Assembly (NCBI GenBank): GCA_947568835.1
Contig: OX387606.1
Span: forward strand, 2,108,001-2,172,000
DNA from: Protonemura montana
Lineage: Eukaryota > Arthropoda > Insecta > Plecoptera > Nemouridae
Direction: 5' to 3'
DNA: 64,000 nucleotides
A program made the position numbers and the translations under genes. Below the pieces are notes generated by a model, which ran no database searches, was not told where the DNA came from, and saw nothing but the letters and a program-made list of their open reading frames with translations. Of this stretch, positions 5,976-61,860 are shown piece after piece. Each line of letters begins with the position of its first letter. The first letter of the stretch is position 1.

Positions 5976-5978
5976 GTG

Positions 5979-7020
5979 TCCAAGTAGCTCAATTGGTTAG
6001 AGCAACACCCGTGACAGGTGCAGATCGGGGTCCAAGTAGCTCAATTGGTTAGAGCAACACCCGCGACAGGTGGAGATCGGGGTCCAAGTAGCTCAATTGG
6101 TTAGAGCAAAACCCGCGACAGGTGGAGATCAGGGTCCAAGTAGCTCAATTGGTTAGAGCAACACCCGTAAAAGGTGGAAATCGGGGTCCAAGTAGCTCAA
6201 TTGGTTAGAGGAACACCCGCGACAGGTGGAGATCAGGGTCCAAGTAGCTCAATTGGTTAGAGCAACACCTGCGACAGGTAGAGATCGGGGTCCAAGTAGC
6301 TCAATGGTTCAGAGCAACACCCGTGACAGGTGGAGATCGGGGTCCAAGTAGCTCAATGGTTCAGAGCAACACCCGCGACAGGTGGAGATCGGGGTCCAAG
6401 GAGCTCAATTGGTTAGAGCAACACCCGTGACAGGTGGAGATCGGGGTCCAAGTAGCTCAATGGTTCAGAGCAACACCCGCGACAGGTGGAGATCGGGGTC
6501 CAAGTAGCTCAATTGGTTAGAGCAACACCCGTGACAGGTGGAGATCGGGGTCCAAGTAGCTCAATTGGTAAGAAAAACACCCGCTACAGGTGGGGATCGG
6601 GGTCCAAGTAGCTCAATTGGTTAGAGCAACACCCGTGACAGGTGGAGATCGGGGTCCAAGTAGCTCAATGGTTCAGAGCAACACCCGCGAAAGGTGGAGA
6701 TCGGGGTCCAAGTAGCTCAATGGTTCAGAGCAACACCCGCGACAGGTGGAGATCGGGGTCCAAGTAGCTCAATTGGTTAGAGCAACACCCGTGACAGGTG
6801 GAGATCGGGGTCCAAGTAGCTCAATTGGTAAGAAAAACACCCGCTACAGGTGGGGATCGGGGTCCAAGTAGCTCAATTGGTTAGAGCAACACCCATGACA
6901 GGTGGAGATCGGGGTCCAAGTAGCTCAATGGTTCAGAGCAACACCCGCGAAAGGTGGAGATCGGGGTCCAAGTAGCTCAATTGGTTAGAGCAACACCCGC
7001 GACAGGTGGAGATCGGGGTC
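5979..7020 (+). repeat. 52-bp tandem array of tRNA-derived sequence
   Basis: There are about 20 copies of a 52-base unit beginning GTCCAAGTAGCTCAATTGG. The unit contains TAGCTCAATTGGTTAGAGCA, a near-perfect tRNA D-arm and Pol III A box, then an anticodon-arm-like CCCGTGACAGGTGG. A fuller relative with a B box (GGGTTTGAGTCCC) is at 18.8 kb with matching upstream flank. The array is therefore the 5' part of a tRNA-derived SINE-like element repeated without its B box. Variants such as CTCAATGGTTCAGAGC recur in several copies. Confidence 0.9.
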
Positions 7021-7075
7021 CTATGCTATCCAAGATATAGCGGGATAAGCGGCCGTAGGCAGCGGGTACTGCTAG
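7021..7075 (+). mobile_element. Helitron-like 3' terminus next to the 52-mer array
   Basis: GCGGCCGTAGGCAGCGGG followed by TACTGCTAG and T repeats the terminus at 201-231. It starts directly after the last 52-mer copy, so the array lies just inside this element's 3' end. Confidence 0.45.
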
Positions 7076-7907: not shown

Positions 7908-9876
7908 CTACGCTTTTCTCGACTTCTTCGACTTCTTCGACTTCTTCGACTTCTTCGACTCCGGCTCCGGCTCCGGGCTCGGGCTCGGGTCTATTTCTAC
8001 TGCCGACATTTCTCCGTCGTTATCGGTATCCAGGTCGTGCCAATCGACTGAATCAGGTGACACTCCGATGCTGGTGAGGTACGTTCGGACTTCATCGTCG
8101 TTCAGCTCCCCGTCACCATCAGCGTCATTGTCAGAAACGATGTCCGCCCCGGTTTCTTCTCGATTTTTCTTCGGTGCTGCGCTGGCTGAATACCAAGAAA
8201 GCAGAAAGGTTAATTAGGCACCCGCCTAATTGATACAATTAATTATTTAATACAATGATGTAGTGGTCAATGCTCGCGGGTGTACGCAGTTCACCCAGTG
8301 GTGTAGTGGTCAACACACGTGGGTGTACGCAGTCTACCCAGTAATGTAGTGGTCAATGCTCGCGGGTGTACGCAGTCCACCCAGTGGTGTAGTGGTCAAC
8401 ACACGTGGGTGCACGCAGTCTACCCAGTGATGTAGTGGTCAATGCTCGCGGGTGTACGCAGTCCACCCAGTGATGTAGTGGTCAATGCACGCGGGTGTAC
8501 GCAGTCCACCCAGTGATGTAATGGTCAATGCACGCGGGTGTACGCAGCCCACCCAGTGATGTAGTGGTCGATGCTCGCGGGTGTACGCAGTCCACCCAGT
8601 GGTGTAGTGGTCAACACACGTGGGTGTACGCAGTCCACCCAGTGATGTAGTGGTCAATGCACGCGGGTGAACGCAGTCCACCCAGTGATGTAGTGGTCAA
8701 TGCACGCAGGTGTATGCAGTCTACCCAGTGATGTAGTGGTCAATGCACGTGGGTGTACGCAGTCCACCCAGTGATGTAGTGGTCAATGCACGCGGGTGTA
8801 CGCAGTCCACCCAGTGATGTAGTGGTCAATGCACGCGGGTGAACGCAGTCCACCCAGTGATGTAGTGGTCAATGCACGCAGGTGTATGCAGTCTACCCAG
8901 TGATGTAGTGGTCAATGCACGTGGGTGTACGCAGTCCACCCAGTGATGTAGTGGTCAATGCACGCGGGTGTACGCAGCCCACCCAGTGATGTAGTGGTCA
9001 ATGCACGCGGGTGTACGCAGCCCACCCAGTGATGTAGTGGTCAATGCACGCGGGTGTACGCAGTCCACCCAGTGATGTAGTAATCAATGCACGCGGGTGT
9101 ACGCAGCCCACCCAGTGATGTAGTGGTCAATGCACGCGGGTGTACGCAGCCCACCCAGTGATGTAGTGGTCAATGCATGCGGGTGTACGCAGTCCACCCA
9201 GTGATGTAGTGGTCAATGCACGCGGGTGTACGCAGTCCACCCAGTGATGTAGTGGTCAATGCACGCGGGTGTACGCAGTCCACCCAGTGATGTAGTGGTC
9301 AATGCATGCGGGTGTATGCAGTCCACCCAGTGATGTAGTGGTCAATGCACGCAGGTGTACGCAGTCCACGCAGTGTTGTAGTGGTCAATGCACGCGGGTG
9401 TACGCAGTCCACCCAGTGATGTAGTGGTCAAGGCACGCGGGTGTACGCAGTCCACCCAGTGATGTAGTAATCAATGCACGCTGGTGTACGCAGTCCACCT
9501 AGTAATGCAGTGGTCAATGCACGCGGGTGTACGCAGTTCACCCAGTGATGTAGTGGTCAATGCACGCTGGTGTACGCAGTTCACCCAGTGATGTAGTGGT
9601 CAATGCACGCGGGTGTACGCAGTCTACCCAGTGATGTAGTGGTCAATGCGTGCGGGTGAACGCAGTCTACCCAGTGATGTAGTGGTCAATGCACGCGGGT
9701 GTACGCAGTCTACCCAGTGATGTAGTGGTCAATGCACGCGGGTGTACGCAGTCCACCCAGTTATGCAGTGGTAAATTAACCCGAATTAATCTCACAATCC
9801 ACTTACCAGGCGGTAGCAGCACCAGCAACGCCAGGCTGCAGAAGACAGCAAGCATCGCCGTGGTCTTAAAATGCAT
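7908..9876 (-). CDS. Small secreted two-EF-hand protein
   Basis: Two exons join in frame: 9807-9876 (phase-1 donor, G then GTAAGT) and 7908-8185 (acceptor after TTCTTGGTATTCAG). The product is 115 aa. Residues 1-23 (MHFKTTAMLAVFCSLALLVL and on) form a signal peptide with an ASA-A cleavage site. Two EF-hand loops follow: one begins DNDADGDGELNDDE, the other reads DTDNDGEMSAVE. A low-complexity tail has Pro-Ser and Pro-Glu repeats, then four Ser-Lys-Lys repeats, encoded by a nine-base DNA repeat. It is probably a secreted calcium-binding protein of the cell exterior, shell, cuticle or glue; the tissue is unknown. The single intron holds the 43-mer minisatellite. A TATA box and AATAAA frame the gene. 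Confidence 0.85.
8262..9775. repeat. 43-bp minisatellite in the EF-hand gene intron
   Basis: There are about 35 copies of a 43-base unit, typically GATGTAGTGGTCAATGCACG followed by CGGGTGTACGCAGTCCACCC. TGTAGTGGTCAA resembles the A box of Gly/Asp/Glu-type tRNAs, but no B box is present. The array fills nearly all of the intron. One isolated copy lies at 33968-34018. Open frames across the array are a by-product of its periodicity. Confidence 0.92.
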
Positions 9877-14154: not shown

Positions 14155-14965
14155 TTTATTTGTGATGTTTAACGACGTACTGTTTTGACAACTGGCCCTG
14201 TGGCACTGGTCTAATGGCGTCGGTGAATGAGTGAATGATGATGAGGATGATGATGAACCTAACCTAACCTAGAAGGGAGGAGGGGAAACCTGGTGCTGGC
14301 ACGTAGCCTACTCCTGTCGAAGAGCACCAAGGGGACCACCGGCTTAACGTCCCTTCCGAAGGACGGTACAACGCGAACAACAGGATTCCTCCACAAATCC
14401 ATGCTTTCGAGAGGTTGATAAGCAAGGCGAATGAAGTTGCTGTACTAACTTTCATCCCTCTTACCTCTCTCCCGAATATAACTGGTCTTGTGTATGATGG
14501 TCACCCATCCAATACCTGACCCAGCGCAGTGTTGCTTAACCTTCATCCCTCCAACCTCTCTCCCGAATATAACTGGTCATGTGTATAATGGTCACCAATC
14601 CAATACCTGACCCAGCGCAGTGTTGCTTAACTTTCATTCCTCCAACCTCTATCCCGAACAGAACTGGTCATGTGTATGATAGTCACCCATCCAATACCTG
14701 ACCCAGCGCAGTGTTGCTTAACTTTCATCCCTCCAACCTCTCTCCTGAACAGAACTGGTCATGTGTATGAAGGTCACCCATCCAATACCTGACCCAGCGC
14801 AGTGTTGCTTAACTTTCATCCCTCCAACCTCTATCCCGAACAGAACTGGTCATGTGTATGATGGTCACCCATCCAATACCTGACCCAGCGCAGTGTTGCT
14901 TAACTTTCATCCCTCCAACCTCTATCCCGAACAGAACTGGTCATGTGTATGATGGTCACCAATTG
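14155..14965 (-). mobile_element. 5S-derived SINE, 5'-truncated, 6 internal repeats
   Basis: Minus-strand copy of the SINE described at 26371-27194. The 3' body (about 14155-14455) contains CCTTCGGAAGGGACGTTAAG and the conserved GTGCTCTTCGACAGGAGTAG. About six 91-base repeats of the 5S box A-IE-C segment follow (14455-14965). The 5' terminal part with the CACCGGTTCTCG motif is missing. The A/T-rich TTTATTTATTTATT next to it is the tail side. Confidence 0.85.
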
Positions 14966-16564: not shown

Positions 16565-18235
16565 TCTCCAAAATAGCCAATGTGTAACAAGCTCTACAGC
16601 CTACAGGAAGCTAAGTACAGAATGCGACTTATTATCATTCAATAGTTCAGACAATTATCTAAAAGTACTTTTTTTTTATTTTCGATAAAATAAATATTGG
16701 AGGCGTTAGAGGGGTTGGCGTTTTTAATGCTCCCCATAAGACCAATGTTAAATTACGCAAAATGGCAAATGTGTAACAACCCCTACAGCCTACAGGAAAC
16801 AAAGGACATAATGCGACTTATTATCATTCCATAGCTCAGACAATTATCTAAAAGTACTTTTTTTTTATTTTCGATAAAATAAATATTGGAGGCGTTAGAG
16901 GGGTTGGCGTTTTTAATGCTCTCCATAAGACCAATGTTAAATTACGCAAAATGGCAAATGTGTAACAACCCCTACAGCCTACAGGAAACAAAGGACAGAA
17001 TGCGACTTATTATCATTCAATAGTTCAGACAATTATCTAAAAGTACTTTTTTTTTATTTTCGATAAAATAAATATTGGAGGCGTTACAGGGGTTGGCGTT
17101 TTTAATGCTCTCCATAAGACCAATGTTAAATTACGCAAAATGGCAAATGTGTAACAACCCCTACAGCCTACAGGAAACAAAGGACAGAATGCGACTTATT
17201 ATTATTAAATAGTTCAGAAAATTCTCTAAAAGTACTTTTTTTTTATTTTCGATAAAATAAATATTGGAGGCGTTAGAGGTGTTGGCGTTTTTAATGCTCT
17301 CCATAAGACCAATGTTAAATTACGCAAAATGGCAAATGTGTAACAACCCCTACAGCCTACAGGAAACAAAGGACAGAATGCGACTTATTATCATTCAATA
17401 GTTCAGACAATTATCTAAAAGTACTTTTTTTTTATTTTCGATAAAATAAATATTGGAGGCGTTAGAGGGGTTGGCGTTTTTAATGCTCCCCATAAGACCA
17501 ATGTTAAATTACGCAAAATGGCAAATGTGTAACAACCCCTACAGCCTACAGGAAACAAAGGACATAATGCGACTTATTATCATTCCATAGCTCAGACAAT
17601 TATCTAAAAGTACTTTTTTTTTATTTTCGATAAAATAAATATTGGAGGCGTTACAGGGGTTGGAATTTTTAATGCTCTCCATAAGACCAATGTTAAATTA
17701 CGCAAAATGGCAAATGTGTAACAACCCCTACAGCCTACAGGAAACAAAGGACAGAATGCGACTTATTATTATTAAATAGTTCAGACAATTCTCTAAAAGT
17801 GCTTTTTTTTTATTTTCGATAAAATAAATATTGGAGGCGTTAGAGGGGTTGGCGTTTTTAATGCTCTCTATAAGACCAATGTTAAATTACGCAAAATGGC
17901 AAATGTGTAACAACCCCTACAGCCTACAGGAAACAAAGGACAGAATGCGACTTATTATTATTAAATAGTTCAGAAAATTCTCTAAAAGTACTTTTTTTTT
18001 ATTTTCGATAAAATAAATATTGGAGGCGTTAGAGGGGTTGGCGTTTTTAATGCTCTCCATAAGACCAATGTTAAATTACGCAAAATGGCAAATGTGTAAC
18101 AACCCCTACAGCCTACAGGAAACAAAGGACAGAATGCGACTTATTATCGTTTAATAGTTTAGACAATTCTCTAAAAGTACTTTTTTTTTATTTTCGATAA
18201 AATAAATATTGGAGGCGTGAGAGGAGGCAGCGTTT
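16565..18235. repeat. 189-bp tandem satellite, about 9 copies
   Basis: Nine head-to-tail copies start near 16580, 16770, 16960, 17148, 17337, 17526, 17715, 17904 and 18094. Each contains TGTAACAACCCCTACAGCC, a T8 run, TTTTCGATAAAATAAATATT and TTGGCGTTTTTAATGCTC. Copies are nearly identical in the middle and diverge at both ends. It is non-coding and probably lies in intron 1 of the secreted-protein gene. Confidence 0.92.
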
Positions 18236-19340: not shown

Positions 19341-21313
19341 ATGACGGCCATGTTGGTTCACGTCGCACTGTTAGTGCTGCTGGCGACCCTAGTGGCGACC
19401 GGCAACATCGTGTTTCCGGGCCCGACCGCTCAGCCGGCGTGGCGCTCGTCTCAATCTGCATTGACTGCCGTTACCCCCCAACAAATGGTGAAGTCGTCAC
19501 GGATAGGTGAGGCGCGAGTTAATCTATTATCATTATTATTTGTGGTGTTTAACGACGCACTGTTTTGACAACTGGCCATGCGGCACTGGTCTAATGGCGT
19601 CGGTGAATGAGTGGATGATGATGAAGATGATGACGATGAACCTAACCTAGCCTAGAAGGGAGGAGGGGAAACCCGGTACCGGCACGTAGCCTACTCCTGT
19701 CGAAGACCAAGGGGACCACCGGCTTAACGTCCCTTCCGAAGGACGATACAACACGAACAGCAGGATTCCACCACAAATCCATGCTGTCGAGAGGTTGATA
19801 AGCAAGGCGAGTGAAGTTGCTGTACTAACTTTCATCCCTCCAACCTCTCTCCCGAACAGAACTGGTCATGTGTATAATGGTCACCCATCCAATACGTGAC
19901 TCAGCGCAGTGTTGCTTAACTTTCATCCCTCCAACCTCTCTCCCGAACAGAACTGGTCATGTGTATGATGGTCACGCATTCAAAACCTGACTCAGCGCAG
20001 TGTTGCTTAACTTTCATCCCTACAACCTCTCTCCCGAACAGAACTGGTCATGTGTATAATGGTCACCCATTCAATACCTGACTCAGCGCAGTGTTGCTTA
20101 ACTTTCATCCCTCCAACCTCTCTCCCGAACAGAACTGGTCATGTGTATAATGGTCACCCATCCAATACCTGACTCAGCGCAGTGTTGCTTAACTTCGGTG
20201 ATCTAACGAGAACCGGTGTTTCCAACACGCCAAACTGTTCGGTACGAGTTTATCTCTCATAGGCCGTGGTAGCCACCACACACGTGACTCCCCGTAATTA
20301 GTGCGTGACGACCTATTTGTTTTGATTCACACGATTGATGACTTTTCGGCATTGATATTGATACAATTATTGTACCTATTGCTTACTGGCTTCGCGATCA
20401 GGACATGTCGAAATTACCTTTTACTCCTCCATTCAATCTGTCGGAATATGAGATAAAATGCTTGGCACAAAAAGACAAACATATGCACAAGCAAACAAAC
20501 ATATGCACAAGTTGGTGATTGCGGATAAATGTTGGAAATGAAACGCTAGAGGTCAATCCGAGGGCAACAGATAAGCATATGACACATGCGAAATGTGACG
20601 TAGGAGTGCGGGGAAAACACATCATCCAGTGATAGCGGTTTTGAAACTAAATAAACATTTCGATTTTCTTGACTTCATATTTTGACTGTGTCAATTTGTG
20701 CTAGATCTTCCGCAAATAAGAAATTCGAGTCAAGTTACAGTTACTTTGACTTTGTCATTCGCATGTAAGTTGCAAAACACCAAAGTGAAAAACGCAATTT
20801 CAGACTCTTTTACAGCCACAGTAATTTTTGGTTATTTTTTGGATGGAAGTCAACCCAAAGTAGGGAAAATGAGCAACTGAAGTTCGGTGCTCTTCCCTTG
20901 CCATTCCACCCCACGCCCTCAATAGTAAGATAGGTTTTATCGGTGGGAGACACGGATTGCGACAATTTTTGGCTACTTCCAACACGTTTTCATGCGCAAT
21001 TCTAAGCATAACAGTAACGCTCTCTAAACTACGGAGCCCCCAAGGGTGGCACACCCATGTCTGATGGCCCACGGTGATGCTCTACAGTTCCAGTCTCATC
21101 AACGTGCCGAACCACGACGCCGAGGTGCCCAAACGATCCACCAGAGGGCACAACTGAAGACACGCTGGACCGCACCTGTTTCGAGATGACCGACGAGGAG
21201 GACAGCATCGCTATGTACTCGGCGCTCGGACATCAGTGCAGGGATGGTTTCTTGCTCGCACGCGACGACAGCTGTCGCCGAATTGCGAGATTGCAGAACC
21301 GCAAACCGCCCAA
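19341..21313 (+). CDS. Secreted cysteine-containing protein (partial)
   Basis: Exon 19341-19506 encodes a signal peptide (MTAMLVHVALLVLLATLVATG) and a spacer, ending with a phase-1 donor (ATAG then GTGAGG). Exon 21088-21313 follows acceptor TCTACAG and restores the frame. The mature part reads VPVSSTCRTTTPRCPNDPPE, continues through a CFEMTDEED stretch to CRDGFLLARDDSCRR. The frame reaches TGA at 21315, but that TGA lies inside GTGAGT, an excellent donor, so further exons are likely. The CPND...C...C-x2-G...C pattern is common in arthropod secreted or venom-type peptides, but I do not recognise the family. A SINE with target-site duplication sits in the intron. Confidence 0.7.
19525..20244 (-). 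mobile_element. 5S-derived SINE, full length with TSD
   Basis: It is flanked by CGAGTTAATCT (19514-19524) and CGAGTTTATCT (20245-20255), an 11-base target-site duplication with one mismatch. From its 5' end (20244) it reads GTACCGAACAG..., a 5S rRNA segment (CACCGGTTCTCG, then GATCACCGAAGTTAAGCAAC), four or five 91-base repeats of the 5S promoter region, the 3' body and an A/T tail. It lies in the intron of the secreted-protein gene, antisense to it. Confidence 0.92.
20256..21087. other. Intron sequence, nothing recognised
   Basis: This is the remainder of the secreted-protein intron. No repeat or exon was recognised. It ends in the acceptor GATGCTCTACAG. Confidence 0.45.
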
Positions 21314-22574: not shown

Positions 22575-23188
22575 AGCCACTCGGAATAAAAACTAACCCA
22601 TATAATACTAACCCATATAATACTAACCCATATAATACTACCCCATATAATACTAAGCCATATAATACTACCCCATATAATACTAACCCATATAATACTA
22701 ACCCGTATAATACTAACCCATATAATACTAACCCATATAATACTACCCCATATAATACTACCCCATATAATACTACCCCATATAATACTACCCCATATAA
22801 TACTAACCCATATAATACTACCCCATATAATACTAACCCATATAAAACTAAGCCATATAATACTACCCCATATAATACTACCCCATATAATACTAACCCA
22901 TATAATACTACCCCATATAATACTAACCCATATAATACTACCCCATATAATACTACCCCATATAATACTACCCCATATAATACTAAGCCATATAATACTA
23001 ACCCATATAATACTAACCCATATAATACTAACCCATATAGTACTACCCCATATAATACTACCCCATATAATACTACCTCATATAATACTACCCCATATAA
23101 TACTACCCCATATAATACTAACCCATATAATACTACCCCATATAATACTACCCCATATAATACTACCTCATATAATACTACCCCATAA
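22575..23188. repeat. 15-bp minisatellite, about 41 copies
   Basis: The unit is CCCATATAATACTAA with AAC/ACC/AGC variants. As the period is a multiple of three, one frame stays open and would encode a (T/N)-PYNT pentapeptide repeat of about 206 aa. There is no promoter, no flanking coding sequence, and only third-position-indifferent substitutions, so I treat it as non-coding. Confidence 0.92.
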
Positions 23189-23755: not shown

Positions 23756-23759
23756 TCCT

Positions 23760-25485
23760 TTCAGGGGAGTGGATGGGTGACCATCATACACATGGCCAGT
23801 TCTGTTCGGGAGAGAGGTTGGAGGGATGAAAGTTAAGCAACACTGCGCTGAGTCAGGTATTGGATGGGTGACCATCATACACATGGCCAGTTCTGTTCGG
23901 GAGAGAGGTTGGAGGGATGAAAGTCAAGCAACACTGTGCTGGGTCAGGTATTGGATGGGTGACCATCATACACATGATCAGTTCTGTTCGGGAGAGAGGT
24001 TGGAGGAATGAAAGTTAAGCAACACTGGGCTGAGTCAAGTATTGGATGGGTGACCATCATACACATGGCCAGTTCTGTTCGGAAGAGAGGTTGGAGGGAT
24101 GAAAGTTAAGCAACACTGCGCTGGGTCATGTATTGGATGGGTGACCATCATACACATGGCCAGTTCTGTTTGGGAGAGAGGTTGTAGGGATGAAAGTTAA
24201 GCAACACTGTGCTGAGTCAGGTATTGGATGGGTGATCATCATACACATGACCAGTTCTGTTCGGGAGAGAGGTTGGAGGGATGAAAGTTAAGCAACACTG
24301 TGCTGAGTCAGGTATTGGATGGGTGACCATCATACACATGACTAGTTCTGTTCGGGAGAGAGGTTGGAGGGATGAAAGTTAAGCAACACTGCGCTGGGTC
24401 AGGTATTGGATGGGTGACCATCATACACATGACCAGTTTTGTTCGGGAGAGAGGTTGGAGGGATGAAAGTTAAGCAACACTGCGCTGGGTCATGTATTGG
24501 ATGGGTGACCATCATACACATGGCCAGTTCTGTTTGGGAGAGAGGTTGTAGGGATGAAAGTTAAGCAACACTGTGCTGAGTCAGGTATTGGATGGGTGAT
24601 CATCATACACATGACCAGTTTTGTTCGGGAGAGAGGTTGGAGGGATGAAAGTTAAGCAACACTGCGCTGGGTCATGTATTGGATGGGTGACCATCATACA
24701 CATGGCCAGTTCTGTTTGGGAGAGAGGGTGTAGGGATGAAAGTTAAGCAACACTGTGCTGAGTCAGGTATTGGATGGGTGACCATCATACACATGGCCAG
24801 TTCTGTTTGGGAGAGAGGTTGGAGGGATGAAAGTTAATCAACACTGCGCTGAGTCATGTATTGGATGGGTGACCATCATACACATGGCCAGTTCTGTTCG
24901 GGAGAGAGGTTGGAGGGATGAAAGTTAAGCAACACTGCGCTAGGTCAGGTATTGGATGGGTGACCTTCATACACATGACCAGTTCTGTTCGGGAGAGAGG
25001 TTGGAGGGATGAAAGTTAAGCAACACTGCGCTGAGTCAGGTATTGGATGGGTGACCATCATACACAAGACCAGTACTGTTCGGGAGAGAGGTTGGAGGGA
25101 TGAAATTTAAGCAACACTGGGCTGAGTCAGGTATTGAATGGGTGACTATCATACACAAGACCAGTTCTATTCGGGAGAGAGGTTGGAGGGAGGAAAGTTA
25201 GTACAGCAACTTCACTCGCCTTGCTTATCAACCTCTCGACAGCATGGATTTGTGGAGGAATCCTGTATTCGCGTTGTACCGTCCTTCGGAAGGGACGTTT
25301 AGCCGGTGGTCCCCTTGGTGCTCTTCGACAGGAGCAGGCTACGTGCCGGCACCGGGTTTCCCCTCCTCCCTTCTAGGTTAGACTAGGTTCATCATCATCC
25401 TCATCCTCATACACTCATTCACCGACACCATTTGATCAGTCAGTGTGTCGCAAACACCACAAATAATAATAATAATAACTTTCAG
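23760..25485 (+). mobile_element. 5S-derived SINE with 16 internal promoter repeats
   Basis: About sixteen head-to-tail 91-base units each carry TTAAGCAACACTGCGCTGAG and TTGGATGGGTGACC, matching box A/IE and box C of 5S rRNA genes. The SINE body follows (25200-25460) and ends in an (AAT)n tail at 25463-25485. The 5' terminal 5S part is absent. Confidence 0.92.
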
Positions 25486-25489
25486 GGGA

Positions 25490-26360
25490 GAATCTCTCAC
25501 TAACGGCGAGAAAAATTCTGTTCCAGGAAGCAGTTGGTGTTCCCAGGCTAACACTAGAACCCAGGTCCCTCGAACGTGTGACCCGCAGGGTAAAACAGCT
25601 GATCGGCCAAGCATGCAGCGCAGCGCTGCAGAGGAATGCTCAACTACTAAGCGAGGGGCGTAGTAACTCCATGGTTCGCTTGTATGCCGCGCCGAGCCGT
25701 CAGCGCCACCGTACTGTGCAAGTGTTGCGTCATGACCATAACCGCCCCTGCGAGAACAGAATCAAGTCTCAAGATGGCTGATCTCGAAACTGCGAGCCTG
25801 TGACCGTTATGATTGTGGTTGAAATATGTGCGAGCACTGCCTAACACTAGCTGCTTGCAACTCTAAAACAAGCACAATAGTTGGCATGCCTGTGACACCA
25901 AGGGCAAGGTGGCATTGTTTATTTAGAAAAGAGGACCAGGGCGAGTGCAACGATTGCTTTGCGAATACAGCAAGCAGTGAAATTATGAACGTTACCGAAG
26001 ACCGACCAAAGATACTACTTAACCGTTTTTTTCTACGAGTAATGCATACATTTTTTAAAATAATTTTTTAATAAATATTTGCTTCATTTTTCAATTAATG
26101 GCTTTCTCCATTTTTCTCCTAATATTTTAGTAAAAAAGACAGTGTACACTTTCGTTTTCATGTGATTTTCCGTTGTGATTGTTATGATTCATGTACGTTT
26201 TTTAGAACGCAATTATTACAACACATTGCCACTAACAGCAACAATGCACAATCTGATGAGTTGACACCTGACAACCTATTGAAAGGCCTTCATGAAGTTA
26301 ATGGCCTCTTGTGGCGTTGGCCTGCAGTTGTGGGTCTAGCGTAGACCTTAATTAGTAGAT
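25490..26360. other. Spacer, nothing recognised
   Basis: No gene was supported. The region near 25.5-25.75 kb is richer in GC but I could not join any frame to splice sites. Confidence 0.4.
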
Positions 26361-26366
26361 CTCCAC

Positions 26367-26370
<4 letters not shown>

Positions 26371-26398
<28 letters not shown>

Positions 26399-27194
26399 TG
26401 TGGTGTTTAACGACGCACTGTTTTGACATCTAGCCATGCGGTACTGGTCTAATGGCGTCGGTGAATGAGTGGATGATGATGAGGATGATGACGAACCTAA
26501 CCTAGCCTAGAAGGGAGGAGGGGAAACCCGGTGCCGGCACGTAGCCTACTCCTGTCAAAGAGCACCAAGGGGACCACCGGCTTAACGTCCCTTCCGAAGG
26601 ACGGTACAACGCGAACAACAGAATTCCTCCACAAATCCATGCTGTCGAGAGGTTGATAAGCAAGGCGAATGAAGTTGCTGTACTAACTTTCATCCCTCCA
26701 ACCTCTCTCCCGATCAGAACTGGTCATGTGTATGATGGTCACCCATCCAATACCTGACTCAGCGCAGTGATGCTTAACTTTCATCCCTCCAACCTCTCTC
26801 CCGAACAGAACTGGTCATGTGTATGATGGTCACCCATCCAATATCTGACCCAGCGCAGTGTTGCTTAACTTTTTTCCCTCCAGCCTCTCTCCCGAACAGA
26901 ACTGGTCATGTGTATGATAGTCACCCATCCAATACCTGACTCAGCGCAGTGTTGCTTAACTTTCATCCCTCCAACCTCTCTCCCGAACAGAACTGGTCAT
27001 GTGTATGATGGTCACCCATCCAATACCTGACCCAGCGCAGTGTTGCTTAACTTTCATCCCTCCAACTTCTCTCCCGAACAGAACTGGTCATGTGTATATT
27101 GGTCACCCATCCAATACCTGACTCAGCGCAGTGTTGCTTAACTTCGGTGATCTCATGAGAACTGGTGTTTCCAACACGCCAAACCGTTCGGTAC
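26371..27194 (-). mobile_element. 5S-derived SINE, full length, reference copy
   Basis: A perfect 10-base target-site duplication, CTCCACTTAT, flanks it at 26361-26370 and 27195-27204. Read on the minus strand it starts GTACCGAACGGTTTGGCGTG, then the 5S rRNA-like CACC(A)GTTCTC, GATCACCGAAGTTAAGCAAC and TTGGATGGGTGACC. About five 91-base repeats of this region follow, then a body with CCTTCGGAAGGGACGTTAAG, a CAT/GAT-rich stretch and an (AAT)n tail. The body's GGACGTTAAG...GGTGGTCCCC block resembles conserved central domains known from animal SINEs; that comparison is from memory and uncertain. Confidence 0.93.
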
Positions 27195-27240: not shown

Positions 27241-30200
27241 TTACCGCCCTAAGCGGCGGTGTCTGTAGCCTACTCGCCGAGTCCACCAAGCCGTGACCAG
27301 CTCCCCGAAGAACACCGCGGCAGAGGTTGTGAGTCCTGCCGCTAGGACGACGTATGCACCTTGCAGGTGCGCCATGGTAAGAGGCCGCGCTCTATTACCA
27401 GGATCGCTGCTCGTCTCGGCCACTGGCGTCGCGTATTTCGCCTTGGACAGGTGTGCCACTTGGGTGCGCCACTTTGACATCAACCCGGCCTCGCGGATCC
27501 GGTCGATCACCTGTCAAATAATCGCCATGACAGATCGACAAACACGAGTCACAGCCAATCGCAAACTTTCAAAAACCCGCTAGAGCCAAAACGTATCGCA
27601 TGGGGAAATAAATCGACACTGAATTTCTCAAGGATTCCAAAAATATTGTCTTGATCGTTTATTAGATTATCCTACTCGAGTCTTGGTAGAGAAGCAGGGG
27701 TCCTGATCTGGTACTTGGTCAAAGTGATCTCATTGTGGTGTTTTACGACGCACTGTTTTGACAAAGTGCCATGCGGCACTGGTCTAATGGCACTGGGTGA
27801 ATGAGTGGATGATGATGAACTTAATCTAACCTAGAAGGGAGGAGGGGAAATCTGGTACCAGCACGTAACCTACTCCTGTCGAAGAGCAACAAGGGGACCA
27901 CCGACTAAATGTCCTTTCTGAAGGACGGTACAACGCGAACAACAGGATTTCTCCACTGATCCATGCTGTCGAGAGGTTGATAAGCAAGGCGAATGAAGTT
28001 GCTGTACTAACTTTCATCCCTCCAACTTCTCTCCCGAACAGAACTGGTCATGTGAATGATGGTCACCCATCCAATACCTGACTCAGCGCAGTGTTGCTTA
28101 ACTTTCATCACTCCAACCTCTCTCCCAAAAAGAACCGGGCATGTGTTACCTGGTCGAACCTGTCCAGTAAAATGCTGTCTTTGTTGAGCATCATGCCGAC
28201 GTGATAAGAGATCTGGTTGATTGGGAACGGCTTGACAAGCGGGTCTCCGCGGCGGTCCGTGTACAGTGCAGGTGTGAGGAACTCAACGAATGCGCGGTCG
28301 GTCAGGAGAGCAGAGTCGCCTGTGTACGCCACGCGGTTCAGGCAGGCCGTGTCGTTTGGGCAGACAACGCTACGCGACATGATTCCTGCCTTGAGAAGGG
28401 AGAACGATTGTAACCGTGGTAGATTATGAATGCTCGCTAGTTTTTCAAGGGGTTTAAACCCCACATGTTTGTTTGTTTATTTTCCTATAGACATTAACAT
28501 AGTTATTGTGTTGGCATCGTCTCTTATATATCTATATTTATACATATACAGTATTTACAAAGATCACATTATTATTATTATTATTTTTTTTTTACATTAT
28601 TTACAACATGGTTTGTGAAAGGGGAGGGGAGGGAGAGGAGAGAAGTGAAGTGGGTTAGGATTCGAGGTATTCACGTAAGGTGTAGAATGGGTTATATACA
28701 AGGTAGGATTTCAGGGTGTGGTTAAATGAGGACGTGGTTGGGGATTTTTTTATATTACTAAGGAGTTTGTTGTAGAGGACAGTGCAAGTGAAGAGTGGGC
28801 TATTTTCAAATGAAGAGTGGGAATGGGCAGGGACTCTTAGCGCGTTGCTTTGTCTAGTGGGGTATTTGTGGATATCGGAGTTTAGGATAAAGAGCTCGGG
28901 ATGGATCCAGGCAAAGGTGCAGGCTACTTGGATGATGGTGCAGGTGAGGGTAAGTAAGCGGAGGTTGGTAAAATGAGGTTTGGCAGTCTTTCTGCGTGAT
29001 ATGCCAGCTATTATTCTAATTGCCTGTTTTTGCAGTACAAATAGTCTATTGGCCGCTGGAGCGATGCCTGCTTTCGCGACTGACCCAAGTACACTATGGC
29101 TACCTTAATACCTCTACATACATTATGCAAAGGTACTCGGGGAAAGGGAAATATTAAACTGGTTTCCAAAAATCTGCAAGTTGTGTTTTAATTTAATGAG
29201 CGTAGCGATCGAAACAAAGATTCTGTTTGACTAGCCGGAAAAAATCCTTCTTTCTCTTGACTAACCTGACGTTTTAGGTATTTTACATCTTCTAAAAGTA
29301 TTATTGCTAATTTGCCAAGACGCTAACTTCGGCTAACTTCGCTAATAGCTTAGTCTAATTATGATGACGTATGAAATGAAGTTCAGATCCTCTGGTGTTC
29401 GCACTCTCACAAAAGTGTGAACCTGTTTCTCGGAAGGCTCAACTTTTTGCTCGAGTCTGCTGGCACATCATTGAATCAGACGAACCCGAACGAGCAAATT
29501 CTTTCTTTACCCACAGTTTTCGACTGTTCACGAGTTTAGCCGTCGTCGACCGTGTTACCTGCAACCTGTCATCCGGATTGAGGTACGCGTCGTATCCAAA
29601 GGAGAAGGACAACGCTAGCTTGGAGTCGTGTAGGTCCTGGTCGGTGCTGACCTGCTTCTGGCCGCGCGGATTGGTCAGCGAGGTGATCAGCAACGACTGA
29701 TACGCTGTGTTGATCTGAAGGCCAACATAATTTAGTCTTGAAAGACGCCACCAAGGACAAAAGCACCACCGGCAACTGGACGTGGCTTTGGTGTACAAGA
29801 GGCACCATCGGCACTGTAAAACAACCCGGAAAAAAGGCCGACTACGTTACTTCCATGTTGCCTGATGACCCAAGCAGCCAAATAGTCCGGGATCTTATTT
29901 TTTACATTTTTTCTTTAAATTTTTTGTACCCAATTTCTAAGCACAGTTCTCGTGAGGTGATTTTTTAAATTTTAATCTCCATTTTTGCCATCTCCTAAAG
30001 TAACCGCTAGGAAAGGTTTTATGGAAAGCAAAGTTTTAAAAGTTACATTAGAAATTGTCAGGAACTACTTAGTTATTACTAGGACTCAAAACGGCCTTCG
30101 TGCTTGTCACTGTGGGTCTTTGAGGTCCATTCCAAAGGAGAGCAATTTTGTCTCTGCAATGCTAATAAAAAACACGGCTTTGCGCTTCGAACACCCTCAC

Positions 30201-32522
30201 AATGCTAACGGTGGCGTTGATAAGCTCGACTGGCGCCGAACGTGGGGCAACAGAATTGTGTACCTGCAGACAGTACATGGCGTAGATGAGGAAGAAGGCG
30301 CGCAACGCGACGGACCGCGGCTGCCGGAACACGGAGACGCCCAGCAGCATGGCGAGGGCGTTTGACAAGCACGACGCTAACGCGTTGTATGTCTACACCA
30401 AGACAACGAATGATAGTCAGCCATAGGCAACCATACCACAGCCTGCGGATTGCTTTTAAAAAAGAGCTTATGGCGATTACAATTATTATCAAGATGTCCT
30501 GGCACTGTTGTTTTGATGTGATTTTTAATATATGAGCCTTATTGTCTTTTATTTCATGGTAGTCATGTTGCTAAGGGCCTACTCGTTTAAAACTGGCATT
30601 CCACGGCCTCACTGAAATAACGTCTCGAAACCTAGTCGTATGACGTGGTCGCACCTGTGGATCGGCACTGCGCAAGCTGAATGCGTGCGGTAGGCTAGCC
30701 ATGGCCCAGAAGATGACCGCGGCGACGACGATTGTGGCGACCAGCAACGCCCAGAAGGAGGAGGCAAAGATCTTGGCAAGACTCTGCCAGTGCGGGATTG
30801 AGCGTGCGCGCGGTGCGAACCATACAATTGCGTTAGTCACGTAGAAGTGCGTGTTGTCGAACACCTCAATCTTCTGCGTCGACTTGATCAGCGATGCCAC
30901 CATCACCTGCGCACGCACATCGACTGATTGGGCAACGGACGGGTGTTTTATGAATTCAGAAAAATCTGCCCCCAGGTCCTCGTAAATAATACTTATTTTG
31001 GCGCTCTTCGATAGGCTTATGGCAACTCTTGATGACATTTTCATGGTAATTATTTGACTTTGTAACGTTCCCGCCACTTTGTGCAGCTAATAACCTGTCC
31101 CTGCACCGGGGTAGGTAGGTAGGTAGACAATCCTGAAGGGCTGCGACCCCTAGGAGAGTCACTTGACTTCGGTCCTGCTAAGATATCACCGGTTCACCGG
31201 TACTATATTTTAATAAATCATCGTTTCCAATCCAAACTCTTGGCTCGTTTTTACTTTGATTAGCGAAACCTAACAACTTTGACTTTGGTGACATTTTTGA
31301 GTACTTGGTTTTTAAATAAAATCGGCCTAAACACGAATCAAAATTTTCAAACACTTTTAGAGCCATCCAACATTTCTCTTATCTGCAAGTGGTAGTCTAG
31401 GACCTTAGAAAGGATACTTAGCATGCGACAGCAGCTGTGACCTGTGCCCGGCGCGAGTGCAGATGACCGAAGGATCCGACCCACGATCCGTTGGGCAGTG
31501 ACCAGCCCCACTTATCGGGCGACGGCGGCAAGTAGATGGGCTGGAAGTTGGTCGCCGCGGCTATCGTCTCTAGCAGCCGGATTTCCAGGCCGTCATACTG
31601 GCCGTGCGTACTGTTGCCCAGCATCGAAGCCGAGATGTTCACGATGAACGGAGGCCACTCGAACGTGGTCACGGTGACAGGGCAGCCGTGCAGGTTTCGA
31701 GGCGGCCGGACGGCAAACAAGTGGTCACCGTTGTGCACGAACTTCCCGCCGCTGGGGGCAAGGCGTTTCACTTGATGCTGCCATCTGGTGGCCGAACTAT
31801 AATACTTTGTAGCTTCTAGCGTCCGTGATGATTATTGGGATTTAACGACGCACTGTTTTGACATCTGACCATGAGGCACTTGTCTAATGACGTTTCAACG
31901 CCCATCTACTCCTGTCCCACTTTGCTCATGGTGCGGGAAAAGGTCAAACCACTTACCTGTCACCCGTACCCTCGACCCACGTGTCGACCAGCACGGTTCT
32001 GCGCACCCGATCTGCGCACTGCCCACCAGCATCGTACGGCCGCCAAGTGTGGGCCTCGATCAACGCGCCCCTCCACATCAAGACCACCACGTGCGCAGCA
32101 CCCACGACCCACATGACCTCGAGCGCGTGCTGCGCGCGCAGCTCACCGCCTCCCTCGTCGTCACGCAGTGCCACCACAAAGCGTGCACGTGCACTCCATC
32201 CATTCTGTGCGCGCAGCGAGTCGCGCATGCGTGGCAGGAGGTCGGCGTGCGTGATGAGCACGACTGCGCGCGCGTGCGCTGTGAAGCCAAGCAGCACTGG
32301 CCAACGCTGTAATGCGTGCAGCTGGGGGAGCGTGATGTCAGCGTCGTCTGCCGTGGCCGCAAGCAGCGCCACTGGCACTCCAGACGGCACGTTGAGTGCG
32401 CACGCGCTCACAGTGGCCGCCACCAGGGCGCGCTGAGAAGCGGACTGGCCGACTGAGCCGCCGACGAGGCGGCCGCTTGCCGGGTACGCCACCAGGAGCG
32501 AAAGTAACAGAGCCACGAGCAT
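27241..32522 (-). CDS. Ionotropic receptor IR-A (variant glutamate receptor)
   Basis: Seven exons join in frame into 640 aa: 31957-32522, 31442-31751, 30655-30906, 30264-30392, 29559-29714, 28150-28389, 27241-27510. Order: signal peptide (MLVALLLSLLVAYPASG), a short amino-terminal domain, ligand-binding half S1 (VTTFEWPPFIV; VWFAPRARSIPHWQSL), M1 (FWALLVATIVVAAVIFW), pore and M3 with YCLQINTAYQSLLITSLTNP, S2 with CLNRVAYTGDSALL and AGLMSKWR, and M4 (GAYVVLAAGLTTSAAVFF). This is the IR layout of chemosensory cation channels in the neuron membrane; length is typical. I chose ATG 32522 because IR-B starts at the matching residue. Introns hold a LINE fragment, a SINE and a dispersed repeat. No disabling mutation was seen. 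Confidence 0.88.
27730..28145 (-). mobile_element. 5S-derived SINE, 5'-truncated, in IR-A intron 6
   Basis: Diverged SINE body (27730-28015) plus about one and a half promoter repeats. Homology runs to about 28145, that is to within a few bases of the exon 6 donor of IR-A at 28149. Confidence 0.85.
28480..29105 (-). mobile_element. LINE 3' fragment in IR-A intron 5
   Basis: A reading frame without ATG from 29105 to a stop at 28655 encodes the C-terminal end of a non-LTR reverse transcriptase protein. Visible pieces are NRLFVLQKQAIRIIAG, HKYPTRQSNALRVPAHSHSS, TCTVLYNKLLSNIKKSP and LKSYLVYNPFYTLREYLES. The LQK-(K/Q)-AIR and YNKLP-like blocks are typical of Jockey-type LINEs. The 3' UTR has an (AAT)n run. 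It is 5'-truncated and in gene orientation. Confidence 0.85.
31070..31275 (-). repeat. Dispersed repeat in IR-A intron 2
   Basis: About 200 bases match 42460-42672 in the same orientation. Shared blocks include CAAAGTGGCGGGAA, CTACCTACCTACCCC versus CTACCTATCTACCCC, and GGGGTCGCAGCCCTT. It may be a SINE or other short element. No terminal repeats were seen. Confidence 0.65.
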
Positions 32523-33351
32523 TGTCTTGACGAGATTACGGGTACACCATGTTTTATAGGGACTTTTTTGTGGTATTTGATTGGATTTCTTCATCTAGGT
32601 CATTAAAGACTCAACTTATGGCATTTGATTGATGCTCATCATCTCCCAAACAATCTTGACAGGTGACTCTCTGGAATGTATTTTATGGCGTTCAGCTGAG
32701 CTCAATCTAGAATGATGTCATTTACAAATAAGTCACAGCGGAGTACTTTACACTTACATTGAAAGAAGCATGAGGTGCAGAACTTTTTGTTTCTAAAGCA
32801 AACTCACTCGCATTTTCTTTGACTCACCACAATTGCATGTCGATTTTTAAATTGCAGAACAAAGCAATTCAGCAAAGCAAAGCAAATGTGCTGGCCGCAG
32901 GAAGTGGACATTTCGGATGGTTCCAGCCAAACGTCGCCAACATAACGGCAATCTCGTTCACTCGATTGGAAGCACTTTCTACAAATCGAACACAAATAAC
33001 ATCGTTATCAAAAGAAGCGAAGCAATTTTGACCGAGGTCCTGGACGATTGGAGTAGATCGGCGCTAACTGCCCAGGTCATTAGCTAATCGACGAGCAGCT
33101 CCAGAAATGTCAGCAAACCCTTCCCGGTGAGCCCGGAACTTCGGCTGGGAAACTCTGCCGCGGCGAACACCACCCTGGAGAAGTAATCGACACTAATCGT
33201 TTTGCCTGAAACGCGGACGAATTTCAATACCACTTCCCTAATTGAAATATTGAAATCGCTTCCGAGAGCGTTTAGTTATTTGTTATGCGAGCACAACTTT
33301 TGGTTGTCGATGTTAGTTTGGCGTGCAGGAAGTTCGAGTGGTACAGGGAGG

Positions 33352-37000: not shown

Positions 37001-37072
37001 GTTGGCATGAGAGTTCTTGTTGGCATTGACGCCTTCCTGCGTTTTAACGTCTTTTATCACGGGGTGTGGAGA

Positions 37073-43299: not shown

Positions 43300-43636
<337 letters not shown>

Positions 43637-43979
43637 TTAATAATAAACATTTTTATTCCAGATTGGTTGTTACAACATTAGAACGTCATATTTTCCTATG
43701 CTAAAATCATTATTGTAGAAATCGTTTAACGAGTAAAAACAATGGTGTTTTAAAAAATCTTTGAGCAGTTTTACAAATTCTTTATCTTCATATTTTCATT
43801 TAATATAATAGGGCAAATTATTAAAAATATTCACACCGCTTAAGATAGGTCCATTACAATATATTGTTGTCGTCAGGTCATACATTTTGCTATTATGTCT
43901 TAATACATATTTGTGGTTATTATCAAATTTCAATTTTGTAAGTTTCTTATTGTTAATTACATGTCACAATATTAAGGAT
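43637..43979 (-). mobile_element. LINE 3' end fragment
   Basis: On the minus strand the frame reads KLTKLKFDNNHKYVLRHNSK, then LTTTIYCNGPILSGVNIFNN and LPYYIK, an internal stop, then FVKLLKDFLKHHCFYSLNDF. This is the usual C-terminal end of a LINE ORF2 (IFNNLP... FK..LK...FYSL). The fragment is cut at 43980 by a Helitron-like end. It is decayed. Confidence 0.7.
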
Positions 43980-44596
43980 ACTAGCAGTACCCGCTGCCTA
44001 ACGGCACCTTAAGATTTTGAGGGAGTGGGCATTTTGATTTATATTTTACTTGACTTGAAGCATATTTTAAAAAGTTTTCGAAATTTGTCAGATGCCGTTC
44101 CAAAAGTTTTAAATAGGGCCACAACCAAAAGTGCCAAACAACACCTAACAATATTGTTAAATACCATAAAATTCCATAAAATACCATAGAATACCATAGA
44201 ATACCATAGAACACCATAGAATACCTAACAATACCATAGAATACCATAGAACTCCATACAATACCATAGAATACCATATAACTCAGTACTAGCAGTACCC
44301 GCTGCCTAACGGCACCTTAAGATTTTGAGGGAGTGGGCATTTTGATTTATATTTTACTTGACTTGAAGCATATTTTAAAAAGTTTTCGAAATTTGTCAGA
44401 TGCCGTTCCAAAAGTTTTAAATAGGGCCACAACCAAAAGTGCCAAACAACACCTAACAATATTGTTAAATACCATAAAATTCCATAAAATACCATAGAAT
44501 ACCATAGAATACCATAGAACACCATAGAATACCTAACAATACCATAGAATACCATAGAACTCCATACAATACCATAGAATACCATATAACTCAATA
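43980..44596 (-). mobile_element. Helitron-like 3' end, exact 308-bp tandem duplicate
   Basis: On the minus strand both copies end GCCGTTAGGCAGCGGG then TACTGCTAG and T, at 43981 and 44289. The 308-base copies look identical from the terminus through the first decamer repeats. The same family occurs at 1-231 and 47925-48160. Confidence 0.7.
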
Positions 44597-60229: not shown

Positions 60230-60600
60230 GTTATCGAGAGTTCTTAAAAGTTAAGCAACACTGCGCTGAGTCAGGTATTGGATGGATGACCATCATACAC
60301 ATGACCAGCTCTGTTCGGGAGAGAGGTTGGAGGGATGAAAGTTAGTACAGCAACTTCACTCGCCTTGCTTATCAACCTCTCGACAGCATGGATTTGTGGA
60401 GGAATCTGTTTTTCGAGTTGTACCGTCCTTCGGAAGGGACGCTAGGCTGGTGGTCCTCTTGGTGCATTTCGCCAAGAAATGACTATCTGCTGGAACCCTA
60501 TCTAGGTAACGTAGGGTTCTCATCACCATTCAGTGTCACCAGACCAGTATCACCAGACTATTGGTCAAAACATTGCGTCGTTAAACCCCCGTAATCAATC
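60230..60600 (+). mobile_element. 5S-derived SINE with a single promoter unit
   Basis: It starts abruptly at AAAGTTAAGCAACACTGCGC, has one box A-IE-C unit, then the body and a degraded 3' end (GTCGTTAAACCCCCGTAATC). It shows that the unamplified form exists beside the 16-unit form. Confidence 0.85.
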
Positions 60601-60877: not shown

Positions 60878-61860
60878 CCATCATATCTAGCCGCGGTCAC
60901 AAAGACACGGCTCCATCGACATCGATTGTCGACAGAAGTTACTTCGGGACAGAAGTGAACGTCCTCGACCCGCATCAGGTAAGTGTTGTTGAAGACGCTG
61001 ATTTTTGTGTCACGGCCGATCGGTATTGATTTTGAGATGAGACTGTCGACTCGGAACTCGATGTTGAAGTGTTGGGCTTCGTCCAGGCTCTCGTTGAAGT
61101 ACGTGATATTGCTGTCACCGATCTCAGGAAGTGCGCACAGATCCCTATCAAGCTTGCTCTTTGCCTCTCTGGTAAGTTTGTCTTTCAATTTTCTGTCAGT
61201 TTGAGTCAATTGAGTTCGGAATTTAACGCTAGTTGTCTGGTCGTCATCTGGCAAAAAAAAAAATACGAAGAAAAATGTCGATATCAAATTTTGTTTGTTG
61301 TTTTTTCTCCGAACTCTGCCATACACATGACCAGTTCTGTTTGGGAGAGAGGTTGGAGGGATGAAAGTTAAGCAACACTGCGCTGGGTCAGGTATTCGAT
61401 GGGTGACCATCATACACATGACCAGTTCTGATCGGGAGAGAGGTTGGAGGGATGAAAGTTAAGCAACACTGCGCTGGGTCAGGTATTCGATGGGTGACCA
61501 TCATACACATTACCAGTTCTGTTTGTGAGAGAAGTTGTAGGGATGAAAGTTAAGCAACACTGTGCTGGGTAAGGTATTGGATGGGTGACCATCATACACA
61601 TGACCAGTTCTGTTCGGGAGAGAGGTTGGAGGAATGAAAGTTAAGCAACACTGCGCTGGGTCAGGTATTGGATGGGTGGCCATCATATACATTCGTCCAG
61701 TTTCATCGGAAGCCCCAGGCATTGCCAGCAGCGTTATCAAGACGCGACGGGCAGCGTCACACCAGATCACCGTCAGATCGGGAAGCCCGATCTTCTCCTG
61801 ACGATGCCAACTCTTAGCTCGTGTCAAACAGCAGATGGTCCTCGAGGAATATGGAAATCC
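60878..61860 (-). pseudogene. IR-like fragment broken by a SINE
   Basis: Exon about 60878-61168 (donor GATGG then GTAAAT) encodes SNITYFNESLDEAQHFNIEF, RVDSLISKSIPIGRDTKISV, FNNTYLMRVEDVHFCPE and CRWSRVFVTAARYD. Upstream, about 61700-61860 encodes LPDLTVIWCDAARRVLITLL. The first resembles the end of IR S1 (IR-A: VASLIKSTQKIEVFDNTHFY) and the second the end of the IR amino-terminal domain (IR-A: ALEVMWVVGAAHVVVL). A SINE array lies between them, and the rest of the receptor was not found. It is probably a third, diverged or dead family member. Similarity is by eye and weak. Confidence 0.35.
61320..61690 (+). mobile_element. 5S-derived SINE, promoter repeats only
   Basis: About four 91-base units with TTAAGCAACACTGCGCTGGG and GATGGGTGACCATCATACAC. 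Neither the 5S 5' end nor the SINE body is present. The right boundary is abrupt at CATATACATTCG. Confidence 0.85.

What the first reader, a model, noticed from the sequence alone, without database searches (positions are those of the whole stretch)
23760..25485. SINE that has multiplied its own 5S-type promoter up to 16 times
The SINE family begins with a 5S rRNA-derived head: CACCGGTTCTCG, GATCACCGAAGTTAAGCAAC and TTGGATGGGTGACC are 5S gene blocks and include box A, IE and box C. In most copies the 91-base segment holding box A-IE-C is repeated head to tail (1, 2, 4, 5, 6 and 16 copies in the seven loci here). Internal promoter repeats of this size are not what I know from 5S-derived SINEs. 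Each unit could bind TFIIIA/TFIIIC, so a copy may have many possible start points.
Basis: partly seen in the sequence, partly recalled or inferred. Interest (0 to 1): 0.75.

Follow-up and report, generated by a model that had tools for sequence, protein, structure and literature searches.

The report
5S-SINE promoter grown into minisatellites
A very common jumping element in this genome has a promoter piece that is repeated head to tail, and in the copies examined the repeats are long almost only towards chromosome ends, where unrelated DNA repeats itself too, so the repeated promoter looks like a by-product of how those regions evolve and not a special trick of the element.

Summary
The window carries a 5S rRNA-derived SINE whose 91-bp box A-IE-box C segment is tandemly repeated (1, 2, 4, 5, 6 and 16 units, plus one bodyless array). 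Genome-wide, at up to 3 mismatches, there are 9,545 head-unit, 26,970 unit-unit and 9,290 unit-body junctions, reversed controls 0. So the 91-mers belong to the SINE.

"SINE multiplied its promoter" is only partly supported. In loci picked without looking at array length, 29 of 49 copies within 4.5 Mb of a contig end are multi-unit, against 1 of 34 further in (p about 3e-8); this holds among copies of similar body divergence. Unrelated tandem repeats are enriched in the same places (8-17% versus 1.1-1.4%). Other segments are arrayed too: a 92-bp unit, a 15-bp unit without promoter boxes, a 36-bp body unit, a flank-SINE chimera, a 52-bp tRNA-like unit. Three periods equal the spacing of 6-nt direct repeats inside the element. 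Promoter boxes in internal units are no more conserved than the rest.

Best account: microhomology-seeded, chromosome-distal minisatellite growth inside a SINE; some multi-unit copies seem also to have retrotransposed. Closest precedent: SINE-derived satellites of squamates. Promoter activity is untested.

The parts
23758..23769 (.). left target-site duplication CTTTCAGGGGAG of the 16-unit copy
   Evidence: 12-bp exact repeat flush with the array start
23770..25200 (+). 91-bp array, 15 full units plus a partial unit that starts at unit position 33; no 5S head
   Evidence: TRF, unit chain
25201..25478 (+). SINE body and (AAT)n tail of the 16-unit copy
   Evidence: body matches in five other window copies; sequence
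25479..25490 (.). right target-site duplication of the 16-unit copy
19826..20243 (-). 5S-derived head (about 20243-20196) followed by 4 units
   Evidence: Rfam 67.3 bits
19525..19825 (-). SINE body and tail of the 4-unit copy
26371..27194 (-). complete copy: 5S head, 5 units, body, (AAT)n tail
   Evidence: Rfam 60.1 bits
27195..27204 (.). target-site duplication ATAAGTGGAG, 5' side of the 5-unit copy (second copy at 26361-26370)
14446..14963 (-). array of 5 full units plus a partial unit, starts mid-unit, no head
14205..14445 (-). SINE body of the 6-unit copy
27807..28146 (-). copy with one full and one partial unit plus body
60247..60477 (+). single-unit copy (unit 60247-60344, body from 60345)
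61320..61702 (+). array of about 4 units without 5S head or SINE body
5978..7021 (+). 52-bp x 20 array of a tRNA-like 5' half (box A, no box B, read by eye): a second Pol III-type element with a multiplied head
   Evidence: TRF; the same family in L073 scores as tRNA in Rfam (40.7 and 34.3 bits); 14,214 unit junctions genome-wide
8256..9776 (+). 43-bp x 35 array; unit resembles a tRNA A-box region by eye only
   Evidence: TRF; 2,644 unit junctions genome-wide; ARAGORN finds no tRNA in the window

Best explanation
This is a large 5S rRNA-derived SINE family in which an internal segment (the 3' part of the 5S-like head, holding box A-IE-C) has become a 91-bp minisatellite unit. The first duplication is most simply seeded by a short direct repeat inside the element: AAGTTA of box A and AAGTTA at the head-body junction lie exactly 91 bp apart in the single-unit form. 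Unit number then changes mostly in the chromosomal DNA, by template switching or unequal exchange. This is part of a regional process that makes tandem repeats of many kinds in the distal few megabases of the chromosomes. Copies with two or more units can apparently also be transcribed and retrotransposed. SHOWN here: structure, genome-wide junction counts, position effect in the sample, other arrays in the same places, exact repeats at three array periods, target-site duplications in some copies. INFERRED: the recombination mechanism, recombination or repair at chromosome ends as the cause, and retrotransposition of multi-unit RNA. The multiplied promoter is then mainly a passenger.
For: Position: of 67 anchored copies, 25 of 41 within 4.5 Mb of a contig end are multi-unit against 1 of 26 further in (p = 1.4e-6; Spearman rho -0.60). 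It replicates in 16 further loci on C4, C5, C11, C12, C13 and C15 (4 of 8 versus 0 of 8); combined 29 of 49 versus 1 of 34, p = 3.1e-8. It holds among copies with body divergence up to 0.035 (18 of 24 versus 1 of 8, p = 0.003). Regional process: tandem repeats that do not match the SINE unit fill 8.1% and 16.8% of terminal loci but 1.4% and 1.1% of interior loci (L001-L030, L061-L090). Other units: a 92-bp unit (L002, L008; 2,447 junctions genome-wide), a 15-bp unit repeated about 91 times up to the locus edge (L001), a 36-bp body unit (L105, 2.3 copies up to the locus edge), a flank-SINE chimera x12 (L072), and a 52-bp tRNA-like unit (L073). Seeds: the 340-nt core has 12 exact direct repeats of 6 nt or more within 200 nt (shuffles 8.6); three sit at the observed periods and places: 15 (TGACCA), 36 (ACAGCA), 91 (AAGTTA). 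L072 has a 7-nt ACTGCGC in flank and SINE (by eye). Promoter boxes in internal units are not more conserved. Retrotransposition: the 16-unit window copy and the 8-unit L004 start mid-unit, flush with 12- and 14-bp target-site duplications.
Against: Units within one array are almost as different as units of different arrays (0.0475 versus 0.0546 over 24 arrays of 3 or more units; within is lower in 19 of 24; permutation mean 0.0543, sd 0.0017, minimum 0.0493 in 1000). Purely recent local expansion would give a bigger gap; arrays must be old, inserted already mixed, or exchanging units between loci. Some arrays do look recent (L010-84: 0.007 within versus 0.040 between). Copies that start mid-unit and hold full units cannot have grown from a truncated single-unit insertion without a donor, so some multi-unit RNA probably moved; yet interior insertions sampled are nearly all single-unit, which this leaves unexplained. 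Only 2 of the 6 mid-unit-start multi-unit copies have a target-site duplication of 8 bp or more by the exact search. Nine of the 12 short direct repeats in the core have no array that I saw, and the 92-bp unit has no useful microhomology at its junction. Multi-unit copies are younger on average (body divergence 0.034, against 0.058 for terminal single and 0.063 for interior copies), so age and position are partly mixed.
Confidence: 0.68

Rival explanations
1. Multi-unit SINEs are a master lineage: RNAs with many promoter units are made and retrotransposed as such, and the multiplied promoter gives an amplification advantage (more TFIIIA/TFIIIC sites, more starts).
For: Mid-unit starts flush with target-site duplications in the 16-unit window copy and the 8-unit L004; a 5-unit copy with complete head and target-site duplication at 26371-27194; units within arrays nearly as divergent as between arrays.
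Against: Sampled insertions further than 4.5 Mb from contig ends are not multi-unit in 33 of 34 cases. Boxes of internal units are not more conserved than the rest. No cluster of 5' ends at the predicted internal start (n = 6). The same element also makes arrays without promoter boxes (L001, L105).
Confidence: 0.17
2. Single-unit copies are turned into arrays by ectopic (between-locus) gene conversion or break-induced copying from other SINE arrays, concentrated at chromosome ends. (Overlaps with the best explanation; the odds are not exclusive.)
For: Explains the position effect, mid-unit starts with intact target-site duplications, and similar divergence within and between arrays.
Against: Does not by itself explain arrays of unrelated sequence in the same regions or a locus-private-looking chimeric unit (L072). 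Not separable from the best explanation with these data.
Confidence: 0.3
3. The position effect is caused by selection or insertion bias: long arrays are purged from chromosome centres, or multi-unit RNAs insert near ends.
For: Unrelated tandem repeats are also rarer in the interior loci, as purging would give.
Against: Single-unit copies were read in the interior of C1 (2.6-22.1 Mb) and C2 (5.3-11 Mb); chimeric and non-promoter arrays in terminal loci suggest that new arrays are being formed there. Gene density was not measured.
Confidence: 0.2
4. The 91-mer is an independent satellite that abuts the SINE by chance.
For: A few arrays lack a SINE body (window 61320-61702, L072).
Against: 9,290 unit-body and 9,545 head-unit junctions genome-wide; single-unit copies have the same head-unit-body order.
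Confidence: 0.01

Closest known systems
SINE-derived satellites (sSats) of squamate reptiles, PMC10702118 (Vassetzky, Kosushkin and Ryskov 2023; seen: abstract and outline, Discussion, the sections on snake Squam3 satellites and on chromosomal localisation)
   Same: A segment of a SINE becomes a tandem unit (67 nt with box B plus body in snakes); different segments give rise to different arrays; a clear subtelomeric preference, stronger for long arrays; ordinary SINE copies spread over the chromosome.
   Different: Their SINEs are other families (Squam1-3), and the snake unit carries box B; here the head is 5S-derived and the unit holds the 5S control region. Here sampled multi-unit copies keep the 3' body (they were found by it or scored by it), 10 of 16 body-anchored ones keep a 5S head match, and some keep target-site duplications; theirs mostly keep one longer terminal unit. 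Here within-array homogenisation is weak.
SINE3, the 5S rRNA-derived SINE class (lepidopteran HaSE3 and others; passages seen in PMC10886601)
   Same: 5S-derived head with box A, IE and box C; non-autonomous, short.
   Different: No multiplied promoter segment is mentioned in the passages seen; the body and tail here were not compared with Repbase.
Tandem repeats grown from TE segments, e.g. tRNA-related regions of SINE-like elements in Hydromantes and Xenopus (table rows seen in the review PMC9659126)
   Same: A Pol III head region becomes a tandem repeat.
   Different: Here thousands of copies are still interspersed SINEs, and copies with 1 to 16 units stand side by side in one genome.

Membership tests
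SINE (5S-derived, SINE3 type) | 5S rRNA-derived Pol III head | tested here: met
   Rfam RF00001 67.3 and 60.1 bits; alignment to the genome's own 5S gene
SINE (5S-derived, SINE3 type) | target-site duplications and 3' simple-repeat tail | tested here: met
   exact repeats of 10-14 bp within 2 bases of the element's 5' edge in 10 of 47 copies; none of 8 bp or more in 23 of 47; other matches are short or off the edge. (AAT)n-type tails read in several copies
SINE (5S-derived, SINE3 type) | many dispersed copies | tested here: met
   13,182 body-start matches at up to 3 mismatches, control 0
SINE (5S-derived, SINE3 type) | 3' end shared with a partner LINE | not tested
   partner LINE not searched for
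SINE (5S-derived, SINE3 type) | transcribed by Pol III | not testable with these tools
   needs RNA or occupancy data
SINE-derived satellite | tandem unit is a part of a SINE | tested here: met
SINE-derived satellite | longer arrays prefer chromosome ends | tested here: met
   measured to assembly contig ends in a sample of loci, telomeres not checked
SINE-derived satellite | homogenised units (concerted evolution) | tested here: inconclusive
   within 0.0475 versus between 0.0546, small but beyond all 1000 permutations

The most novel reading that the evidence does not exclude
Multi-unit copies are working promoter arrays: extra box A-IE-C units raise TFIIIA/TFIIIC binding, multi-unit RNAs are retrotransposed, and thousands of such sites mark the distal chromosome regions, so a SINE promoter array helps to organise chromosome ends.
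Probability: 0.1. Interest if true: 0.8.

Novelty: new variant of a known kind. Interest (0 to 1): 0.5.

Why it matters
One genome holds thousands of copies of the same element with anything from one unit to many, at known chromosomal positions, some with target-site duplications that help to order insertion and growth. That makes it a natural experiment on how minisatellites start (short direct repeats) and where they grow (chromosome ends). It also warns against reading a multiplied promoter as an adaptation of the transposon.

Tried and rejected
Rejected: 91-mer as a separate satellite (junction counts). Not supported: internal start sites (no 5'-end cluster, n = 6; no box conservation). 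Left out of that n = 6: L009 minus-strand copy (start cut by the locus end), L001 (its start lies in the 15-bp array), and truncated copies with no full unit, whose starts (L063 18, L012 41, L101 41, L109 53, L025 63, L111 70) cannot come from an upstream unit. Species: the chaetognath Paraspadella gotoi was considered because of its 257 Mb assembly (PMC12460157, abstract start and passages), but that paper reports 9 chromosome-size scaffolds and ten contigs here reach 12 Mb or more; left unidentified. The RNA fold of one unit was not unusual (z -1.39). The place lists of the genome search were found incomplete (exact minus-strand matches of L003, L009, L010 and L014 are missing from the list), so densities were not taken from them; the lists are used only as support. 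A DNA search with the unit gave nothing; that tool skips very common words. The listings (one search returned none) showed no title or abstract that I recognised as a 5S-SINE with a multiplied promoter; I read passages or sections of five papers only (PMC9191728 on cockroach SINEs among them), and the library lacks most subscription papers.

Full report
WHAT IS THERE. The window lies at C4:2108001-2172000 of a 258.5 Mb assembly in 34 contigs, about 2.1 Mb from a contig end (C4 is 25.9 Mb). It holds six body-bearing copies and one bodyless array of a SINE whose head derives from 5S rRNA. A full copy reads: 5S-like head starting near 5S position 1, then the 91-bp unit one or more times, then a body of about 280-310 bases that ends in an (AAT)n-type tail. 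The unit begins at box A (AAGTTAAGCAAC) and includes the IE region and box C (TTGGATGGGTGACC); these stretches align to a 5S gene of the same genome (L031; the box names and limits are recalled from 5S literature). Window copies have 16, 6, 5, 4, 2 and 1 units; the array at 61320-61702 has neither head nor body.

GENOME SCALE. With up to 3 mismatches the body start occurs 13,182 times, the unit-body junction 9,290, the head-unit junction 9,545 and the unit-unit junction 26,970 times; all reversed controls are 0. So the array belongs to the SINE, and there are about 2.9 unit-unit junctions per unit-body junction, some of them in bodyless arrays.

POSITION. I read loci chosen without regard to array length: 40 by an exact body match on C1 (L001-L030, L061-L070) and 30 by the head-unit junction on C2 and C1 (L071-L100). 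Of the 67 that could be scored, 25 of 41 within 4.5 Mb of a contig end have two or more units, against 1 of 26 further in (Fisher p = 1.4e-6; Spearman rho -0.60). The body-anchored set alone gives 15 of 25 against 1 of 14, the head-anchored set 10 of 16 against 0 of 12. Among copies with body divergence up to 0.035 it is 18 of 24 against 1 of 8; between 0.035 and 0.08 it is 6 of 13 against 0 of 10. The left end and the right end of C1 (3 of 6, against 0 of 4 in its middle) both show it. Sixteen of 27 places of a rare body variant, on six other contigs, gave 4 of 8 against 0 of 8. Together: 29 of 49 against 1 of 34, p = 3.1e-8. The exception is L062 (5 units, 8.96 Mb).

REGIONAL PROCESS. In L001-L030 and L061-L090, tandem repeats that do not match the SINE unit cover 8.1% (C1, 0-2.3 Mb) and 16.8% (C2, 0.1-4.3 Mb) of the remaining sequence, but 1.4% (C1, 2.6-12.8 Mb) and 1.1% (C2, 5.3-11 Mb) in interior loci. 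Other segments of the same SINE are arrayed too: a 92-bp unit from near 5S position 1 to box C (L002, L008; 2,447 junctions genome-wide); a 15-bp unit repeated about 91 times (L001); a 36-bp unit of the body, 2.3 copies up to the locus edge (L105); and a 91-bp chimera of flanking DNA and SINE head, 12 times (L072). A tRNA-like element repeats a 52-bp piece with box A but not box B, 20 times in the window (5978-7021) and 4 times in each of two copies in L073, where the last unit runs on into a tRNA-like 3' half with box B (boxes by eye); 14,214 such junctions exist. Exact listed places further than 6 Mb from a contig end number 6 of 88 for the 92-bp unit (12 places on C3, whose length I do not know, left out), 8 of 100 for the 52-bp unit and, leaving out 16 on C3, 0 of 84 for the 43-bp unit, against 16 of 56 C1 places for the plain head-unit junction (my counts); those lists are capped and not complete.

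SEEDS. In the 340-nt core of the single-unit element 12 exact direct repeats of at least 6 nt lie within 200 nt (shuffles average 8.6). Three of them sit exactly where arrays have formed, at the array periods: TGACCA 15 apart, ACAGCA 36 apart, AAGTTA 91 apart. The other nine have no array in what I read. L072 shows ACTGCGC in both flank and SINE. The 92-bp unit lacks such a seed. This fits slippage or template switching between short repeats, which is inference.

BEFORE OR AFTER INSERTION. The 16-unit window copy begins mid-unit (position 33), flush with a 12-bp target-site duplication; the 8-unit L004 begins at position 54, flush with a 14-bp duplication. The other four mid-unit-start multi-unit copies gave no exact repeat of 8 bp or more (the one at 14963 has an imperfect match by eye). 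A truncated single-unit copy could not regrow the missing part by itself, so such copies need an RNA with two or more units or copying from another array. Against purely local recent growth, units of one array differ by 0.0475 on average and units of different arrays by 0.0546 (24 arrays); the gap is real (below all of 1000 permutations) but small. L010 has one plainly recent array (0.007 against 0.040).

PROMOTER FUNCTION. In 83 internal units the box half diverges as much as the other half (0.0255 and 0.0254); first, last and single units show no significant difference either (p = 1, 0.12, 0.47). Six mid-unit starts (13, 33, 36, 51, 54, 63) do not gather at position 43, where a 5S-type start about 50 bp before box A would fall (my prediction); six is too few to exclude it. 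So a gain in promoter strength is possible but nothing here shows it.

COMPARISON. The nearest precedent is the SINE-derived satellites of squamates (PMC10702118; abstract, Discussion and two Results sections seen): parts of SINEs in tandem, several independent units, subtelomeric preference. What differs is the 5S type, the many intermediates that keep head, body and sometimes target-site duplications, and the fit of three periods to short-repeat seeds. Hence: new variant of a known kind.

Noticed in passing
5978-7021 (+); L073 596-1139: 52-bp array of a tRNA-like 5' half; the last unit in L073 continues into a tRNA-like 3' half with box B (GTTCGAGTCC). 14,214 unit junctions genome-wide.
   Followed up: partly
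8256-9776 (+): 43-bp x 35 array with an A-box-like stretch (TAGTGGTCAATGC, by eye); 2,644 junctions genome-wide, exact listed places near contig ends where the contig length is known.
   Followed up: partly
L072 443-1541: A 12-fold array whose unit joins flanking DNA and the 5' part of the SINE; its period is also 91 bp, perhaps by chance.
   Followed up: partly
L095 76-741: A single-unit SINE that seems to be inserted inside a 91-bp array of the opposite strand.
   Followed up: no
L034-L060 (C11:70-102827): Real 5S genes in clusters with a spacing pattern repeating about every 9.5 kb at the start of C11; a histone 3' stem-loop lies near the 5S gene in L035 and L038, so 5S and histone genes seem linked.
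   Followed up: partly
30571-31077 (-), 31953-32594 (-), 37007-37684 (+): ORFs that resemble pieces of divergent ionotropic receptors of arthropods (recalled likeness, not searched).
   Followed up: no
48853-51187 (-): Broken LINE-type reverse transcriptase ORFs (recalled likeness, not searched).
   Followed up: no
22592-23187, 43300-43646, 44160-46931, 53243-54791, 57212-58153, 16569-18224: Other long tandem arrays in the window (15, 3, 10, 78, 47 and 189 bp units), in line with the regional excess of tandem repeats.
   Followed up: partly
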